NCBI GenBank assembly: GCA_947304245.1
Contig: CAMZAK010000003.1
Coordinates: 1-64,000 of the forward strand
Source of the DNA: an uncultured Clostridia bacterium
GTDB taxonomy: Bacteria; Bacillota; Clostridia; Oscillospirales; Ruminococcaceae
DNA: 64,000 nucleotides
Direction of reading: 5' to 3'
In this document: in pieces, positions 4,411 through 33,242 of the stretch
How the letters are laid out: each line of letters opens with the position of its first letter
Numbering within the stretch: position 1 is the stretch's first letter
Made by a program: the position numbers and the translations under genes
The notes under the pieces: model-generated
Databases searched by the model: none
Told to the model about the DNA's origin: nothing
Seen by the model: only the letters and a program-made list of their open reading frames with translations

Positions 4411-5040
4411 TTATTTTTTATCATCTTTTATAACACTAACTTCTAATATTCCACCTTCATCTAATTCTTCTATTTTAAGATCTTCTACTATTTTGAAAAA
4501 ATTCCCACTAATAATAGAATCCCTTAAATATTTTTTTTGGTTTCTTGTGCAGTCGTAAAGTTTAGGCAACATTTCTAAAATTAATGCATTTACTTGTTCT
4601 ATTTTGGTATCTTTATTATTTAACATCTCAATGCTTAAACCAATTGCATTTTCTATATATTTAATTAATTTTTTTATGGCATCTTTTTTTTCGTTATCAC
4701 TTATTTCGCTATATTTTGTTTCATAAAATTTATTTACATATTCTTTAAATTTTTTAGTATCGTAAATAAGTGATGTTAAGAATATTTTTTCTTTTTCAGA
4801 GTATTCGTTTGAATTGTATATTATATCCATCAAAAAGTTTAATTCGTTGGGGTTATTAATTATTTCATAAATATCTTTACCTAAATTTTTTTCTGCATTA
4901 GAAATTAAAAGTTCTAATGCTGATTCTTTTTCTTTTTCTTTTTCTTTTTCTTTTTCTTTTTCTTGTTCGCTTAAATTAGTTGTATTTGCATAAATTGCTG
5001 TTGTGTTATTTGTAGATTGATTTAAATTATTACTTTCCAT
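4411..5040 (-). CDS. unknown protein with Glu-Lys dipeptide repeat
   Basis: 209 residues, not recognised. A Ser/Asn/Thr-rich start is followed by six Glu-Lys dipeptides (about residues 27-40) and then a largely helical region of about 165 residues rich in Asn, Lys, Glu and Ile. There is no signal peptide or membrane segment. The start is supported by AAGGAG 8 bases upstream of ATG. The composition resembles the Asn/Glu/Lys-rich proteins at 32-34 kb, but no sequence homology is evident. It sits between terminators on both sides, so it is probably transcribed alone. Confidence 0.7.
   Translation of the reverse strand: MESNNLNQSTNNTTAIYANTTNLSEQEKEKEKEKEKEKESALELLISNAEKNLGKDIYEIINNPNELNFLMDIIYNSNEYSEKEKIFLTSLIYDTKKFKEYVNKFYETKYSEISDNEKKDAIKKLIKYIENAIGLSIEMLNNKDTKIEQVNALILEMLPKLYDCTRNQKKYLRDSIISGNFFKIVEDLKIEELDEGGILEVSVIKDDKK
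4926..4961 (-). repeat. hexanucleotide microsatellite (CTTTTT)6
   Basis: Six perfect CTTTTT units inside the coding sequence above, encoding Glu-Lys repeats on the minus strand. The unit is a multiple of three, so slippage would change protein length without breaking the frame. Confidence 0.95.
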
Positions 5041-26677: not shown

Positions 26678-28078
26678 CTAATTTATTTTAAAAAACATAT
26701 CTTTTAACTCTTTTTTAGTTATTTTTAAATTTTTGTCTTCAATTTTCAAATTAGGATATATGTTCGCAATATATGAAATATTTTTATTTTTAGTTAAAAT
26801 GAAAAAACCATTTTCCAATGTTTCTTTATTTAAGGAATATTCTAAATTAATTGTTAAAAGTTTTTGTGAATCTTTTTCTAGAGAATTGTCGTAAACAAAA
26901 AAATCTATGTTTTTATTGTTATTTTTAAATTTTGCAGTAACTTTATTTTTCCATCTTTCTGGAAGTTTTAAGCCATATTCATGTTCAAAATCTATATATG
27001 TGTTTGAAAATTCTTTGTTTTCTTGTTGACTTATTAAATTATTTTTTTCTATTAAATTTCCCCATACTGTTATAAAAGGGATTGGAGTTTCTTTTTTAAA
27101 TTTCAAATTTTCTGAAGAATATCCTGGAAAAGGTTTGTTGTTTGCAATTTCTAATTTATTGTCTTTATTAATATCAAAAAAAGAAGTTTGGGTTAAATTA
27201 TCATGGTTAAAATCTTCTACTGCTTTTATGTTTAAACTGTTATTAGAAAAATTTAACACAAAATTGGATTTATTATAATTTTTTGAATCTTTATTGTTTA
27301 ATGTTAAAAACAAACATGGAGAATTTAAAGTGGTTGAATTGAATTCATATTTTTCAACGTTATTTGTACGATAGAAAGGTTCAAATTTTTCGCAATTTAA
27401 AATTTCAACCCCATCTTCATTTATTTCGTTAATTGTAAAATATTTAATTTTCTTATCTGATTTTAATTTTTCATTTAAATTTTCTGAAATTTTTAGGTTA
27501 TATTTATTAATTTCAAAATTATTAAAAGCATCTCCTAAAGTTATTAATTTTGGGCTTCCATTTAAGTTTACGTCGCAAAGAGTTAGGAAATTGTAGTTGG
27601 AAGAATAAATTTTTTTAAAATTTTCTGTTTTGCAGGTGTAGATGTCGTAATTTTTCTCAGAATTTTTAATTGTGCCTACTATTAAAAATTCCGTGTTATT
27701 TTTTTTGCTTTCTAGCGTTAAAACCTTATCTAGATTGTTCCCTGCAAGTGGAATATCTAAAACATAACGCCATTTTTCTTTTTCCTTTGAAAAAACCGCC
27801 ATTTTTAAATTAGATTTTTCTTTTGTTGTGTAAAACAAAACCGCTAATCTTTTATTATTTAAAAATGTTATTGCTGTTTTTTTACTGCAGTTTTCTGGGA
27901 TTTCTAAAATAATGTTAGATTTAAAATAGTTAGATTTTTTTAATGTGTTATATATTTCATACTCTTCGTTTTCAAATTCAGGAGAAGTTAAAAAGCTTCC
28001 ACCACCAGAAAAAAAGCAGCCAGTTAAACTAAATAATTGAATGGTTAGTGTTGTTATTAAACTTATTAATTTTTTTAT
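26678..28078 (-). CDS. secreted lipoprotein with VCBS/FG-GAP-like repeats; apparent AUA start
   Basis: Extending the frame past the first TTG (27838) recovers a textbook lipoprotein signal: KKLISLITTLTIQLFSLTGC, lipobox LTGC with Cys at about residue 21, then FSGGGS. No ATG, GTG or TTG lies between the Shine-Dalgarno AAGGAG and this signal. The only codon in place for a start is ATA at 28078, 9 bases after AAGGAG. Total about 466 residues. The body has repeated acidic loops (DVNLNGSPKL, EINEDGVEIL, DINKDNKLEI) like VCBS/FG-GAP calcium-binding blades. Probably surface-anchored, co-transcribed with the two-component system and perhaps feeding it. Either a rare AUA start or a recently damaged start codon. 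Confidence 0.7.
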   Translation of the reverse strand: MKKLISLITTLTIQLFSLTGCFFSGGGSFLTSPEFENEEYEIYNTLKKSNYFKSNIILEIPENCSKKTAITFLNNKRLAVLFYTTKEKSNLKMAVFSKEKEKWRYVLDIPLAGNNLDKVLTLESKKNNTEFLIVGTIKNSEKNYDIYTCKTENFKKIYSSNYNFLTLCDVNLNGSPKLITLGDAFNNFEINKYNLKISENLNEKLKSDKKIKYFTINEINEDGVEILNCEKFEPFYRTNNVEKYEFNSTTLNSPCLFLTLNNKDSKNYNKSNFVLNFSNNSLNIKAVEDFNHDNLTQTSFFDINKDNKLEIANNKPFPGYSSENLKFKKETPIPFITVWGNLIEKNNLISQQENKEFSNTYIDFEHEYGLKLPERWKNKVTAKFKNNNKNIDFFVYDNSLEKDSQKLLTINLEYSLNKETLENGFFILTKNKNISYIANIYPNLKIEDKNLKITKKELKDMFFKIN

Positions 28079-28185: not shown

Positions 28186-28917
28186 TTGAAAAAGGTTTTA
28201 ATAACTGGAGGAGCAAAAGGAATTGGTGCAGCTTGTTGCAGAGCTTTTTCTAATGCGGGTTATTTTGTTTTAATTAATTATTTTAAAAGCAAAAAAGAAG
28301 CAGAAAAATTAAAAGAAGAAATAATTAAAAATGGGGGAGTTTGTGAAATTTTTTGTGCTGACCTAACAAATTTTGAAGAAACAGAGAAGATGTTTTTAAA
28401 AATTGAAAAAGAATTTGGGTTTGTGGATGTTTTAATTAATAATGCTGCTGTTTCGCAATATAAACTATTTTCAGATTCTAATTTAAAAGATTGGAAAAAT
28501 GTTTTTAATGTTAACCTATTTGCAATGTTTTTTTGTACTAAAAAGGTTTTGGCAAGCATGATTAAACAAAAAAGGGGCAAAATAATTAACATATCTTCAA
28601 TTTGGGGAGAGGTTGGAGCAAGTTTTGAAGTGGCTTATTCTTCTTCTAAGGCTGCAGTTATTGGTTTTACTAAAGCTTTAGCAAAAGAGGTGGCGCTTAG
28701 CGGAATTAATGTTAACTGCATTGCTCCTGGAGTTATTAAAACAGACATGTTAAAAGAGCTTAATGAAAAAGAATTAAACGAACTAATAAAAAAAATACCT
28801 TCAGAAAAAATTGGTGTTCCTGAAGATGTTGCTAATGCGGCTTTGTTTTTAGCAGATGAAAAATCTTCCTACATTAACGGTGAAGTTTTAAACATAGGAG
28901 GAGGATTTTGCAAATGA
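28186..28917 (+). CDS. short-chain dehydrogenase/reductase, YmfI/FabG-like
   Basis: 243 residues. NAD(P)-binding TGGAKGIG near the N terminus, NNAA, the catalytic Ser-Tyr-Lys set (ISSIWG ... YSSSKAA), and the C-terminal INGEVLNIGGGF. The ISSIWGEVGAS...Y spacing resembles YmfI, the EF-P 5-aminopentanone reductase, more than housekeeping FabG, but this assignment is tentative. TTG start after AAGGAG. Single-gene unit with its own terminator. Confidence 0.85.
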   Translation: MKKVLITGGAKGIGAACCRAFSNAGYFVLINYFKSKKEAEKLKEEIIKNGGVCEIFCADLTNFEETEKMFLKIEKEFGFVDVLINNAAVSQYKLFSDSNLKDWKNVFNVNLFAMFFCTKKVLASMIKQKRGKIINISSIWGEVGASFEVAYSSSKAAVIGFTKALAKEVALSGINVNCIAPGVIKTDMLKELNEKELNELIKKIPSEKIGVPEDVANAALFLADEKSSYINGEVLNIGGGFCK

Positions 28918-28957
28918 AAAACATTAGCAAAACTAATTTCTTCTGCTAATGTTTTTT
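28917..28957 (+). terminator. intrinsic terminator after the SDR gene
   Basis: 13-base stem AAAAACATTAGCA/TGCTAATGTTTTT (28917-28929 with 28944-28956) ending in a T run. It starts on the last base of the SDR stop codon. Confidence 0.85.
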
Positions 28958-28984: not shown

Positions 28985-29209
28985 TTAAGCTGTTAATATA
29001 TATTCTATACTTAATTCTTTATTTGTAATTTTTTCAGGTTTTATACCTTTTTCTTCCCAATCGAACCTATTATCCCATGGAACTAAATAATAATAGCAGG
29101 ATTTAGCATCAATGTTTTCTTTTCCAATAAGAGCATATACATCGAAATCTTTGCGGCTCACATATTTTGTTATGGGATCTAATTTCATCATACTTTTTTC
29201 ATTACCCAT
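28985..29209 (-). CDS. PWENRFDW-family small protein, copy 1
   Basis: 74 residues, not recognised. It belongs to a local family sharing RKD-x3-YALI, then Y-x-LVPW[ED]NRFDWEEKGIKPEKITN. Here the core reads YYLVPWDNRFDWEEKGIKP and ends near KELSIEYILTA. No signal peptide or membrane helix; pattern suggests a short beta-rich fold followed by a helix. ATG is preceded by a leader with GAGAGGTAG about 10 bases upstream, identical in copies 2 and 3. Downstream-most member of the array. Confidence 0.75.
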   Translation of the reverse strand: MGNEKSMMKLDPITKYVSRKDFDVYALIGKENIDAKSCYYYLVPWDNRFDWEEKGIKPEKITNKELSIEYILTA

Positions 29210-29250
29210 GTTATATCTACCTCTCTAAATTAATTTATTAATAATTAGAA

Positions 29251-29340
29251 TTATTTATTTTCATTTTTATCTTTCATTTCCAAATTTTCTTTAATTTTAC
29301 TATATGAAATTTCTTCACTATGGTTTCTAGATTCAACCAA
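29251..29340 (-). other. short open frame after PWENRFDW copy 2, possible gene fragment
   Basis: From TTG 29340 the frame reads 29 charged residues (ESRNHSEEISYSKIKENLE core). There is no Shine-Dalgarno, and upstream the frame overlaps the end of copy 2 in another phase. It is more likely the remnant of a longer helical protein than a gene. Confidence 0.25.
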
Positions 29341-29356
29341 TATATAATCAATTTTT

Positions 29357-29590
29357 TTATTCCGCTAATTTAAATTTTTCATTGAATTCAGAAAATTCAT
29401 ATATCTTAGGATTTATACCTTTTTTTTCCCAATCGAACCTATTTTCCCATGGAGTTAAATAATAATAGTCGGTTTTAGTAGTATCCAAATTATATCCGTT
29501 TTTAATAAGAGCATAAAATTTTCCATCTTTACGGCTAACACATTTTTTTGGGGGGATAACTTTCACCGTAAATTTTTCTTCAATACCCAT
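29357..29590 (-). CDS. PWENRFDW-family small protein, copy 2
   Basis: 77 residues, the longest member. VSRKDGKFYALI is followed by an insert GYNLDTTKT, then YYYLTPWENRFDWEKKGINP and a divergent tail. About 39 bases coding for the IPFFSQSNL...PW core (29410-29450 on the plus strand) are almost identical to the matching bases of copies 1 and 5, which implies recent duplication or conversion. The leader is the same as in copies 1 and 3. Confidence 0.75.
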   Translation of the reverse strand: MGIEEKFTVKVIPPKKCVSRKDGKFYALIKNGYNLDTTKTDYYYLTPWENRFDWEKKGINPKIYEFSEFNEKFKLAE

Positions 29591-29645
29591 GTTATATCTA
29601 CCTCTCTAAATTACTCTAAATTAATTTTATTAAAATTCCAATTTT

Positions 29646-29867
29646 TTATTCTTTTAATTCATATTCTTTATTTAATTCTCCATTTGTAATTTTTTCAGGC
29701 TTTATGTGTTTTGCTTCATGATTAAATCTGTTTTCCCATGGAACTAACAAATGATAGGAGTCTTTATAATCAATGTATATTGCAACAAGAGCATATAATT
29801 TGTTATCTTTGCGGCGCATATATTGTTTTGGGGGATCAATAAACCTTACAGAGACTTCATTACCCAT
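29646..29867 (-). CDS. PWENRFDW-family small protein, copy 3
   Basis: 73 residues. MRRKDNKLYALV, then YHLLVPWENRFNHEAKHIKP, and an end EKITNGELNKEYELKE close to that of copy 1. The Trp of FDW is replaced (FNHEAK), the most altered core among the full-length members. Same leader as copies 1 and 2. First gene of the left-hand trio. Confidence 0.75.
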   Translation of the reverse strand: MGNEVSVRFIDPPKQYMRRKDNKLYALVAIYIDYKDSYHLLVPWENRFNHEAKHIKPEKITNGELNKEYELKE

Positions 29868-30213
29868 GTTATATCTACCTCTTTAAATTTACTTTAAATT
29901 AATTTATTAATAATTAGAATTATTTATTTTTCATTCCATTCTATATCTAATTCTTTTCCACTTCAGTTTTATTTTTTATTACCATGGTTAAATATTTCAT
30001 TTCTTTTTTTCTTTTTTCTTCTATCTTATTTTTATAAATTTCATCAAGTTCCTCATAAGTTTTAGTTTTATTATCTCTTTTACAATTGTCTTTAAAAAGG
30101 TCTTTCAAAGCTTTTTTTAATTCTTTTTATTTATTTAAATTTATTTATTTAAATTTTTACTCTTATTTTTTTCTTGAGGCTTATTCTTCTATATATGTTT
30201 CTTCTATATATGT
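29868..30213 (-). other. inter-gene region with a fragment of a helical ORF
   Basis: Contains a copy of the leader/spacer module seen after 29208 (TTAATAATTAGAATTATTTATT at 29907-29930). It also holds an open frame 29947-30126, from TTG 30108 53 residues (FKDNCKRDNK, YEELDEIYKNKIEEKRKKEM). That frame has no Shine-Dalgarno, so it may be a truncated gene. Nothing else recognised. Confidence 0.35.
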
Positions 30214-30396
30214 TTATTTTATATCCTCATATGGCACCATTATTGAATTTATACCTTTTTCTTTCCAATCAAATTTATTTTCATAGGGCACTAAGGTACA
30301 AAACCCAATTAATGACGGCTGATTTATAACATATTTTTTACCTTTATAAGTGCATATAAAAAAAAGTTTTTTTTTGGTTTGTTTTTTTTTCGACAT
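30214..30396 (-). CDS. PWENRFDW-family small protein, divergent copy 4
   Basis: 60 residues. A Lys-rich start, then YKGKKYVINQPSLI, and the core degenerated to CTLVPYENKFDWKEKGINS. The RKD motif is replaced by YKGKKY. The Shine-Dalgarno is weak. It is a distant member and may be decaying. Confidence 0.55.
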   Translation of the reverse strand: MSKKKQTKKKLFFICTYKGKKYVINQPSLIGFCTLVPYENKFDWKEKGINSIMVPYEDIK

Positions 30397-30519
30397 AAAT
30401 AATCAATTTCTTTATTGTTGGTATTATATAACAAAAGTGTTTCACTTTTGAAAAAGTTTTAAATTAATTATTCCATTCTTTTTCATTTAATTAATTTAAG
30501 TTGTTTATGTTTTTCAAAT

Positions 30520-30847
30520 TAATTTTACATTTTTTCATATTTTAAAAATATTTAACTATTTTGTTATTGTACAATATCTAAAATTTCGTCAACGAGGGCA
30601 TCAACGATTGTTGAAATTGCTTCATCTGGAATTTTACCTCTAAGTTCTCTTAAAAGTACATTCCTAATAGTTTTTTTAATATCGGATTTAAGACCCATGT
30701 AAAAAATCACTCTTTCTCATAATAATTGTTATATTTTAATTTGTTATTAGTTATTTTTTTAAATTTTCTATAATTTTTGTTATGTTTTCTATAAATTTTT
30801 ACATCTTTTTTATTGTGTGATAAAATATTTATCATCTTTATGGTGTT
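30520..30847. repeat. 328-bp direct repeat, copy A
   Basis: Matches 31112-31439 at a constant offset of 592 bases with a single difference noticed (TGTGTGATAA against TGTGTAATAA). It contains a 44-codon ORF with its leader and ends at the stop codon of PWENRFDW copy 5. Confidence 0.95.
30564..30698 (-). CDS. 44-residue unknown protein, copy A
   Basis: Too short for usual ORF cut-offs: MGLKSDIKKTIRNVLLREL is the first 19 residues, then GKIPDEAIST and VDALVDEILDIVQ. It reads as two amphipathic helices. AAGAGTGA lies 8 bases before ATG. The encoded sequence is identical in copy B. Keeping the frame within an identical repeat is weak evidence by itself, but the conserved leader and RBS support translation. 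It follows PWENRFDW copy 5 on the same strand. Confidence 0.6.
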   Translation of the reverse strand: MGLKSDIKKTIRNVLLRELRGKIPDEAISTIVDALVDEILDIVQ

Positions 30848-31055
30848 AGACTTTTATTTTTTCTATATTGTTTCCGTATTCTCTTACTTCTTCAGGTTTT
30901 ATACCTTTTTCTTCCCAATCGAACCTATTTTCCCATGGAACAAAATGATAGATTTCTTTTTCGCCAGGGCCATAAGGAAGCCATTCTTTTTCAGTTTTAA
31001 CAGATGCATATGCTTTTTTCTTATATATATATTTGTATTTGTATTCTTTTGTCAT
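30846..31055 (-). CDS. PWENRFDW-family small protein, copy 5
   Basis: 69 residues. The N-terminal half differs from the others (MTKEYKYKYIYKKKAYASV, Lys/Tyr-rich), but the core is canonical: YHFVPWENRFDWEEKGIKPEEV. The leader upstream (AAGAAAGAATGAGCGATT) resembles that of the 44-residue ORFs rather than that of copies 1-3. Upstream neighbour of 44-residue ORF copy A. Confidence 0.7.
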   Translation of the reverse strand: MTKEYKYKYIYKKKAYASVKTEKEWLPYGPGEKEIYHFVPWENRFDWEEKGIKPEEVREYGNNIEKIKV

Positions 31056-31111
31056 GAATCGCTCATTCTTTCTTAGTTTAATTAATTTAATTTATTTATA
31101 TTTTTTAAAAC

Positions 31112-31439
31112 TAATTTTACATTTTTTCATATTTTAAAAATATTTAACTATTTTGTTATTGTACAATATCTAAAATTTCGTCAACGAGGGCATCAACGAT
31201 TGTTGAAATTGCTTCATCTGGAATTTTACCTCTAAGTTCTCTTAAAAGTACATTCCTAATAGTTTTTTTAATATCGGATTTAAGACCCATGTAAAAAATC
31301 ACTCTTTCTCATAATAATTGTTATATTTTAATTTGTTATTAGTTATTTTTTTAAATTTTCTATAATTTTTGTTATGTTTTCTATAAATTTTTACATCTTT
31401 TTTATTGTGTAATAAAATATTTATCATCTTTATGGTGTT
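31112..31439. repeat. 328-bp direct repeat, copy B
   Basis: Second copy of 30520-30847. Together with copy 5 and the pseudogene at 31505 it gives two [PWENRFDW gene + 44-codon ORF] modules in tandem. Confidence 0.95.
31156..31290 (-). CDS. 44-residue unknown protein, copy B
   Basis: Same 44-residue product as the ORF at 30564-30698, with the same leader and RBS. It lies downstream of the start-less PWENRFDW copy 6. Confidence 0.6.
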   Translation of the reverse strand: MGLKSDIKKTIRNVLLRELRGKIPDEAISTIVDALVDEILDIVQ

Positions 31440-31504
31440 TAGACCTTTCTTTTTTATATATTTCCTTCAACTTGTTTGAATTATCCACACCTAGCATTAG
31501 TATA

Positions 31505-31699
31505 TTATGGGTTTACTATATGTTGTATGTCCTTAGGATTTATTTTTAAGGGTTCTATTTCTTTTAATTCAAAATCAAACCTGTCTTCCCATGGAACTAA
31601 ATAAAATAAATCTCCGCCTCTATGTATAACAGCATATTTTTTGTTTCTATAAATAGCTATTGGATAGTAAGCTGAATTTATATATAAGTAACTTCTTTT
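31505..31699 (-). pseudogene. PWENRFDW-family copy 6, start codon missing
   Basis: The open frame reads YYPIAIYRNKKYAVI, then LFYLVPWEDRFDFELKEIEP, and ends IVNP. It clearly belongs to the family. A TAG lies just upstream, no ATG, GTG or TTG occurs before the conserved region, and no Shine-Dalgarno is seen. Either a pseudogene or a gene using a non-canonical start. Confidence 0.6.
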
Positions 31700-32051: not shown

Positions 32052-33242
32052 TTATTGTTTTGGTTTGTTTTCGGAAGAATTGATGTTGGTAGTATTATTA
32101 TTTGTGTTTTGTATATTTGTATTTTGCACATTTTGATTTTTTAAATTATCTTGATTAACATTATTAGGATTTGGGGTTTCATTTTTGTTAGCAGAATTTG
32201 TTTTCAATTTTTTATTTTCTTGTATTTTTTGTTTTATTGTTTGGTATTCTTTAAGAAGTTTTTCTAAGTTTTCCATTATTTTATCATGATTTTCTGTTAT
32301 AAAGTGACTAATGAATGTTTCATTGTTAATTTTCATATTATTATCATTTAATTCATTAGAATTTTTATTAACATTGTTTATTTCATTTGAGTTTTCGTTT
32401 TCATTAGATGAATTAAAGTTATTAGTGTTAGTATTATGTGATGTTTCATTGTTAATTTTCATATTATTTTCATTTAATTCATTAGAATTTTTATTAACAT
32501 TGTTCATTTCATTTTGTTGAGAATTGTTTCCTTGTATTTTTTGTTTTATTGTTTGGAATTCTTTAAGAAGTTTTTCTAAGTTTTCCATTATTTTATTATG
32601 ATTTTCTGTTATAAAGTTACTAATAGATTTTCCATTTTCATGGTTTATTTCATTTGAGTTTTCGTTTTCATTAGATGAATTAAAGTTATTAGTGTTAGTA
32701 TTATGTGATGTTTCATTGTTAATTTTCATATTATTTTCATTTAATTCATTAGAATTTTTGTTAACATTGTTTATTTCATTTTGTTTAGAATTGTTTTCTT
32801 TTCGTTTAAGATTAATATATTTTTCTAATGACATTTCTATGGCATTTTTACCTTTTTCATAAAGTTCTTTTAAAGGGTTTTTAATAATACTTTCATGTTT
32901 ATTATTAATTTCTTCATGATTATTATTAATATCTTCATGTTTATTATTAATTTCTTCGTGATTATTATTTATTTCGTTTTGTTGAACTTCGTTTTCATTT
33001 TTTTCGTTTTCTTTAGTTTCTTCTTCATCGTTGTTTTGTTTTTTGTCGTTAGTTTTAATATTAATTTGTTCTTTTTTATTTTCAAAGTCTATTAGGTTAT
33101 TGTTTTTATCTAATTTTTCGTTTTCTCTTTCTTCTTTTAATAGATGTTCTTTGTAGGTTTTCATCATTTCTTCTTTATATTTTTCAGAATTTTCTTTAAT
33201 GTAGCCTTCATAGTCAAAATTAATGTCTAAATTAATTTGCAT
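32052..33242 (-). CDS. large Asn/Glu/Lys-rich repeat protein
   Basis: About 396 residues, dominated by Asn, Glu and Lys. N-terminal charged coil (about 1-60), then four HEEINNKHEDINN-type units. A block (NNVNKNSNELNENNMKIN ...) follows that recurs two to three times, alternating with a coiled-coil block (ENHNKIMENLEKLLKEF) that recurs with 104-codon spacing. The tail is QNTN-rich. No signal peptide or membrane segment. GGAGG lies about 11 bases before the ATG at 33242; the frame runs six codons further up. Not recognised. The alternating coil and disordered repeats suggest a scaffold-like or host-facing protein, but that is speculation. Confidence 0.65.
   Translation of the reverse strand: MQINLDINFDYEGYIKENSEKYKEEMMKTYKEHLLKEERENEKLDKNNNLIDFENKKEQINIKTNDKKQNNDEEETKENEKNENEVQQNEINNNHEEINNKHEDINNNHEEINNKHESIIKNPLKELYEKGKNAIEMSLEKYINLKRKENNSKQNEINNVNKNSNELNENNMKINNETSHNTNTNNFNSSNENENSNEINHENGKSISNFITENHNKIMENLEKLLKEFQTIKQKIQGNNSQQNEMNNVNKNSNELNENNMKINNETSHNTNTNNFNSSNENENSNEINNVNKNSNELNDNNMKINNETFISHFITENHDKIMENLEKLLKEYQTIKQKIQENKKLKTNSANKNETPNPNNVNQDNLKNQNVQNTNIQNTNNNTTNINSSENKPKQ

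What the first reader, a model, noticed from the sequence alone, without database searches (positions are those of the whole stretch)
28985..31699. Tandem family of short unknown proteins built on a VPWENRFDW core
Five short minus-strand ORFs plus one start-less copy share RKD-x3-YAL and [LF]VPW[ED][ND][RK]F[DN]W-E-x-K-x-I-x-P. N and C termini and leader sequences vary. Copies 1-3 share one leader; copy 5 has a different leader, shared with other genes. About 39 bases around the core are nearly identical between copies 1, 2 and 5, which points to recent duplication or conversion. Rapid diversification around a fixed core is typical of defence, effector or immunity-type families, but no known family was recognised. 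This is the best candidate here for an undescribed system.
Basis: partly seen in the sequence, partly recalled or inferred. Interest (0 to 1): 0.8.

Follow-up and report, generated by a model that had tools for sequence, protein, structure and literature searches.

The report
Orphan tandem family of small proteins
One small-genome bacterium, with named relatives from the cow rumen, carries six side-by-side copies of a tiny protein family found nowhere else in the genomes searched; they look like real, selected genes built on a fixed core, but nothing ties them to a defence or immunity job.

Summary
Five short minus-strand genes and one copy without a start codon share an [LF][VT]P[WY]-x-x-[RK]F core. 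They are homologous (E 7e-10 to 5e-4 from one copy), and the array has five ATG ORFs of 60 aa or more where shuffles average 0.08. Old pairs show purifying selection on the core (omega 0.01-0.03, p about 1e-4). The youngest pair (c1/c3) shows a weak excess of amino-acid change outside it (p 0.04, uncorrected).

The family is an ORFan. It occurs only at this locus in its 1.06-Mb genome. It is absent from seven congeners and from broad draws of family, order and class (about 1,190 genomes searched), and from the bacterial, viral, phage and plasmid collections. No Pfam, NCBIfam, PADLOC or PDB sequence match and no convincing PHROG match.

AlphaFold suggests a small SH3-like beta-barrel (pLDDT 79 and 69; fold matches weak). 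The array lies between fabG-like and pyrB genes, where congeners carry a SpoIID/peptidoglycan-binding gene or nothing. No toxin, defence gene or reverse transcriptase was found with it.

Best reading: a lineage-specific, tandemly amplified family of small cytosolic binding modules with a fixed fold and variable surfaces. The 'defence/immunity' label is not supported; a spore-coat role is equally open.

The parts
28985..29209 (-). copy 1 (74 aa)
   Evidence: ORF; profile E 1.1e-30; leader AGAGAGGTAGATATAACATGGG
29357..29590 (-). copy 2 (77 aa)
   Evidence: ORF; E 8.6e-30; same leader
29646..29867 (-). copy 3 (73 aa)
   Evidence: ORF; E 2.5e-27; same leader, 1 mismatch
30214..30396 (-). copy 4 (60 aa), most diverged core (VPYENKFDW)
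   Evidence: ORF; E 1.7e-23
30846..31055 (-). copy 5 (69 aa), different leader
   Evidence: ORF; E 8.3e-27; leader compared
31505..31699 (-). copy 6, frame open but no ATG/GTG/TTG start; probably decaying, or started at an unusual codon
   Evidence: E 1.4e-26
29036..29080 (-). core tract of copy 1, nearly identical at DNA level to copies 2 and 5 (37-38 of 39 bases)
30564..30698 (-). 44-aa ORF (MGLKSDIKKTIRNVLLREL...), copy a, lying between copies 4 and 5
   Evidence: no Pfam, NCBIfam or PHROG match; only two copies in the genome
31156..31290 (-). 44-aa ORF copy b, identical protein
   Evidence: within a 300-nt direct repeat with 2 mismatches
30510..30809 (.). direct repeat a (99% identical to 31102-31401): recent duplication
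31102..31401 (.). direct repeat b
28917..28956 (-). 16-bp hairpin followed by T run: terminator between the array and the convergent fabG-like gene
   Evidence: fold -17.4 kcal/mol, z -6.2
30432..30450 (.). perfect palindrome CAAAAGTG-3-CACTTTTG in the spacer of a TTCAAA/TATAAT promoter-like site before copy 4; the only perfect site in the genome
32052..33242 (-). Asn-rich ORF of about 400 aa upstream of the array; N-terminal motif NxxKYxxEMxxxY shared with genes at the same place in congeners
   Evidence: E 2.8e-4 among 183 window ORFs; synteny

Best explanation
A lineage-specific (ORFan) family of small proteins, 60-77 aa and probably cytosolic, amplified in tandem. Shown: the copies are homologous, the core is under purifying selection in old pairs, and the family is not found outside this species in the sets searched. 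Shown weakly: the fold is a small SH3-like beta-barrel. Inferred: the conserved YxLxPWENRFDWEEKGIxP segment forms a central strand and the following turn of the barrel, while the variable N-terminal strands, hairpin loop and C-terminus make the binding surface, so each copy binds its own partner. Copies arise by tandem duplication and local gene conversion, then drift or are selected apart. The likeliest class of role is a protein- or nucleic-acid-binding adaptor or inhibitor rather than an enzyme; the partner is unknown.
For: Homology and ORF excess. Core omega well below 1 for c4 against c1, c2 and c5 (0.01-0.03, p 1e-4 to 3e-4) and all-codon omega 0.07 for c6 against c1 (p 0.0013). Own strong Shine-Dalgarno for most copies and a terminator at the end. 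AlphaFold with c1 first: pLDDT 79, pTM 0.66; with c5 first: 69, 0.52; the same order of strands in both. Best fold matches are small phage proteins and DUF1653 (E 0.013-0.1, prob about 1), CarD/tudor/UvrD-tudor domains (Z 4.1-4.5) and SH3 domains (Z about 2). No relatives.
Against: The fold rests on a six-row alignment, and no fold match reaches significance. No partner or expression data. Catalytic function is not excluded. The variable parts may simply be unconstrained.
Confidence: 0.45

Rival explanations
1. Sporulation (spore-coat or mother-cell) proteins: small, fast-evolving, lineage-specific proteins that took over the place of a SpoIID/peptidoglycan-binding gene and are expressed in the mother cell.
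For: Congener RUG14389 (G005) has, in the same slot between the fabG-like and YcxB/pyrB genes, a minus-strand pair: a 316-aa protein with the NxxKYxxEM motif, then a SpoIID + PG_binding_1 protein. The motif recurs in the ~400-aa ORF upstream of the array. By its sequence, the window still holds spoIIE and a sporulation-type sigma factor. Spore-coat proteins are often orphan and fast-evolving (general knowledge).
Against: The link is by position only; no sporulation promoter was shown; the nearest relative G001 has lost the SpoIID gene at this place, so the slot may just be decaying. No coat-protein homology.
Confidence: 0.2
2. Defence, anti-phage or immunity-type proteins diversified by an arms race.
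For: Fixed core with fast change around it; c1/c3 flanks show 23 amino-acid changes and one synonymous-only codon; fold neighbours are mostly small phage proteins.
Against: No toxin, effector, integrase or known defence gene at the locus; positive selection is p 0.043 in one of 45 tests; viral matches are expected because that library holds only viral proteins; no RT, so no diversity-generating retroelement.
Confidence: 0.15
3. A decaying or neutral tandem repeat family in an AT-rich hot spot of duplication, without a current function in most copies.
For: AT-rich island (17-23% GC against 26%); copy 6 has no start; other recent duplications nearby; island absent in relatives.
Against: Five intact ORFs, most with strong Shine-Dalgarno sequences, and purifying selection on the core.
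Confidence: 0.2

Closest known systems
SH3-like small barrels (tudor/CarD/KOW-type; DUF1653 of phages and bacteria)
   Same: Size, strand order and weak fold matches
   Different: No sequence-profile match at E up to 10 in Pfam or PDB sequences; the PWENRFDW core is not known to me from these families
Taxonomically restricted (ORFan) tandem gene families of bacteria
   Same: Confined to one species in the sets searched, short, tandem, fast-evolving outside a core, AT-rich island
   Different: Nothing beyond its particular sequence
Immunity-gene arrays of polymorphic toxin systems
   Same: Tandem short paralogues with diverged ends
   Different: No toxin module or toxin remnant recognised in the window

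Membership tests
SH3-like barrel superfamily / DUF1653 | Sequence profile match | tested here: not met
   No Pfam family at E up to 10 for any of five copies
SH3-like barrel superfamily / DUF1653 | Five-stranded barrel fold | tested here: inconclusive
   Models pLDDT 79 and 69; best PDB Z 4.5, best viral E 0.013
Anti-phage defence systems | Match to a known defence protein or system genes nearby | tested here: not met
   No PADLOC match for the copies tested; only low-complexity scores for neighbouring Lys/Asn-rich ORFs
Polymorphic toxin immunity array | Toxin gene or toxin C-terminal cassette next to the immunity genes | tested here: not met
   Neighbours are a fabG-like SDR, pyrB, TrkA-type and two-component genes and Asn/Lys-rich ORFs
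Diversity-generating retroelement target | Reverse transcriptase in the genome | tested here: not met
   No RVT_1 match in the whole genome; control genomes ring
Spore-coat / sporulation protein | Expression under a mother-cell sigma factor or presence in spores | not testable with these tools
   Only a positional link to a SpoIID gene in a congener
Prophage or plasmid gene family | Relatives in phage or plasmid records | tested here: not met
   None in IMG/VR, INPHARED or PLSDB

The most novel reading that the evidence does not exclude
A new family of small SH3-like binding proteins whose surfaces are being diversified by positive selection and gene conversion around a fixed core, forming a species-specific recognition or inhibitor repertoire in a reduced-genome bacterium.
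Probability: 0.12. Interest if true: 0.65.

Novelty: new member of a known kind. Interest (0 to 1): 0.3.

Why it matters
The protein family is undescribed and adds a clean case of a species-restricted tandem family with a measurably constrained core. If its diversity proved adaptive, it would point to a recognition repertoire in a reduced-genome bacterium of an uncultured, apparently rumen-dwelling genus. As it stands it is one ORFan family in one assembled genome, and such families are common.

Tried and rejected
Pfam, NCBIfam, PADLOC and PDB sequence searches gave nothing for the copies, and PHROGs only chance-level scores (E 0.018-0.18). Weak profile hits in other genomes (E 0.05-5e-4 per genome across hundreds of genomes) were inspected for four of the best: a solute-binding protein, RecJ, a sensor kinase and a probably noncoding frame, i.e. 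chance. DGR idea: no RT. Rfam: nothing. The palindrome as a shared operator: no second perfect site in the genome. PDB fold searches of both models gave no significant match. A first omega run was discarded because the optimiser did not move (redone). Pfam and PADLOC scores for the neighbouring Asn/Lys-rich ORFs (T2SSM, Hep_59, LmuB) are taken as low-complexity artefacts. The short match to Bacillus phage G is AT-rich low complexity. Two literature searches gave nothing on this family.

Full report
Observation. The five ORFs and the start-less sixth copy are present as described. A single copy (c5) finds all the others, and nothing else, in the 1.06-Mb genome at E 6.9e-10 to 4.8e-4. The ORFs are not a by-product of composition: five ATG ORFs of at least 60 aa against a mean of 0.08 in shuffles. 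Invariant residues are P, F, K and I of the P[WY]xx[RK]F...K.I core; RKDxxxYAL is complete only in c1-c3. The near-identical 39-base tract of c1, c2 and c5 is real: 37-38 of 39, against 25-32 in other pairs. c1 and c3 share nearly identical sequence just upstream of the start apart from an 11-base gap, while their coding sequences differ at 33 of 72 codons by amino acid.

Are they genes? Codon-model tests reject neutrality for the core between old pairs (c1/c4, c2/c4 and c4/c5: omega 0.01-0.03, p 1e-4 to 3e-4) and for all codons of c1/c6 (omega 0.07, p 0.0013), so the copies were translated and constrained. Several of these estimates sit at the saturation limit, and the tests are pairwise, not independent and uncorrected, so only the direction should be trusted. 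Outside the core, c1/c3 show 23 amino-acid changes and one synonymous-only codon, omega above 1 with p 0.043; c1/c2 and c2/c3 do not differ from 1. This is a hint, not proof, of diversifying selection. Most copies have strong Shine-Dalgarno sequences, and a hairpin terminator (z -6.2) closes the array against the convergent fabG-like gene.

Distribution. The window's genome belongs to a genus with small genomes (0.8-1.6 Mb); named members are MAGs RUG14389 and RUG13599 ('Ruminococcaceae'; the RUG prefix denotes rumen genomes, own knowledge). None of the seven congeners has the family, nor do draws of 397 genomes from the family, 394 from the order and 391 from the class (these draws overlap in part), nor the bacterial genome, viral, phage and plasmid collections. 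The congeners are distant (PyrB 53-63% identical), so a fast-evolving short family could have changed beyond recognition; 'species-specific' means 'in what was searched'.

Locus history. In G005 (RUG14389) the order is fabG-like (+), SpoIID/peptidoglycan-binding protein (-), 316-aa protein (-), YcxB-like (+), then two genes and pyrB. In G001, the nearest relative, the fabG-like gene is followed by a gap of 280 bases, the YcxB-like gene and pyrB. Reading the other strand of that gap gives, by my own translation, a short minus-strand ORF beginning MDMQFIEKNFKKYADEMMKIYKK. The ~400-aa Asn-rich ORF upstream of the array has the same N-terminal motif (E 2.8e-4 among 183 window ORFs; this G001 peptide was one of the three profile sequences). 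The array therefore sits where the SpoIID gene stands in G005, in a 5.2-kb AT-rich island (17-23% GC). Recent duplications are common in it: a 300-nt repeat with 2 mismatches carrying an orphan 44-aa ORF, and repeats inside the Asn-rich ORF.

Structure. Two AlphaFold runs, with different first sequences, agree on a strand order of about five strands with a turn and short helix at PWENRFDWEEK. Matches are to small SH3-like barrels: phage proteins and DUF1653 at E 0.013-0.1, CarD, UvrD-tudor and Mfd domains at Z 3.8-4.5, SH3 domains at Z about 2 for the second model. None is significant, so the fold is a working model.

Mechanism. The most economical reading is a set of small binding modules: a conserved scaffold and variable edges, multiplied by tandem duplication and homogenised in the core by gene conversion. 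Homology, constraint and restriction are shown; the fold is suggested; binding and partner specificity are inferred. Rivals are spore-coat proteins, arms-race proteins and a decaying repeat family.

Verdict. Real, coding, undescribed and orphan; ordinary as a kind. Interest 0.3.

Noticed in passing
30510-30809 and 31102-31401: 300-nt direct repeat with 2 mismatches, each copy carrying the same 44-aa orphan ORF (MGLKSDIKKTIRNVLLRELRGKIPDEAISTIVDALVDEILDIVQ) between diverged family copies; far younger than the copies it separates.
   Followed up: partly
32052-33242: Asn-rich ORF of about 400 aa with internal repeats; N-terminal NxxKYxxEMxxxY motif shared with genes in the same slot of congeners, one of them upstream of a SpoIID/peptidoglycan-binding gene.
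   Followed up: partly
30432-30450: Perfect 8-3-8 palindrome in the spacer of a promoter-like site before copy 4; operator-like; the only perfect copy in the genome.
   Followed up: partly
whole genome G000: Near-complete genome of only 1.06 Mb, while most other genomes sampled from its family and order are 1.3-3.8 Mb; by its sequence it still keeps spoIIE and a sporulation-type sigma factor; congeners are 0.8-1.6 Mb.
   Followed up: no
4411-5040: Orphan-looking 209-aa ORF with an EKEKEK tract, another low-complexity minus-strand ORF of the kind seen in the island.
   Followed up: no
26678-27838: Fast-evolving 386-aa protein with no Pfam match, only 30-40% identical in congeners although its neighbours are 50-78%; next to the two-component regulator in each congener where it was found.
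   Followed up: partly
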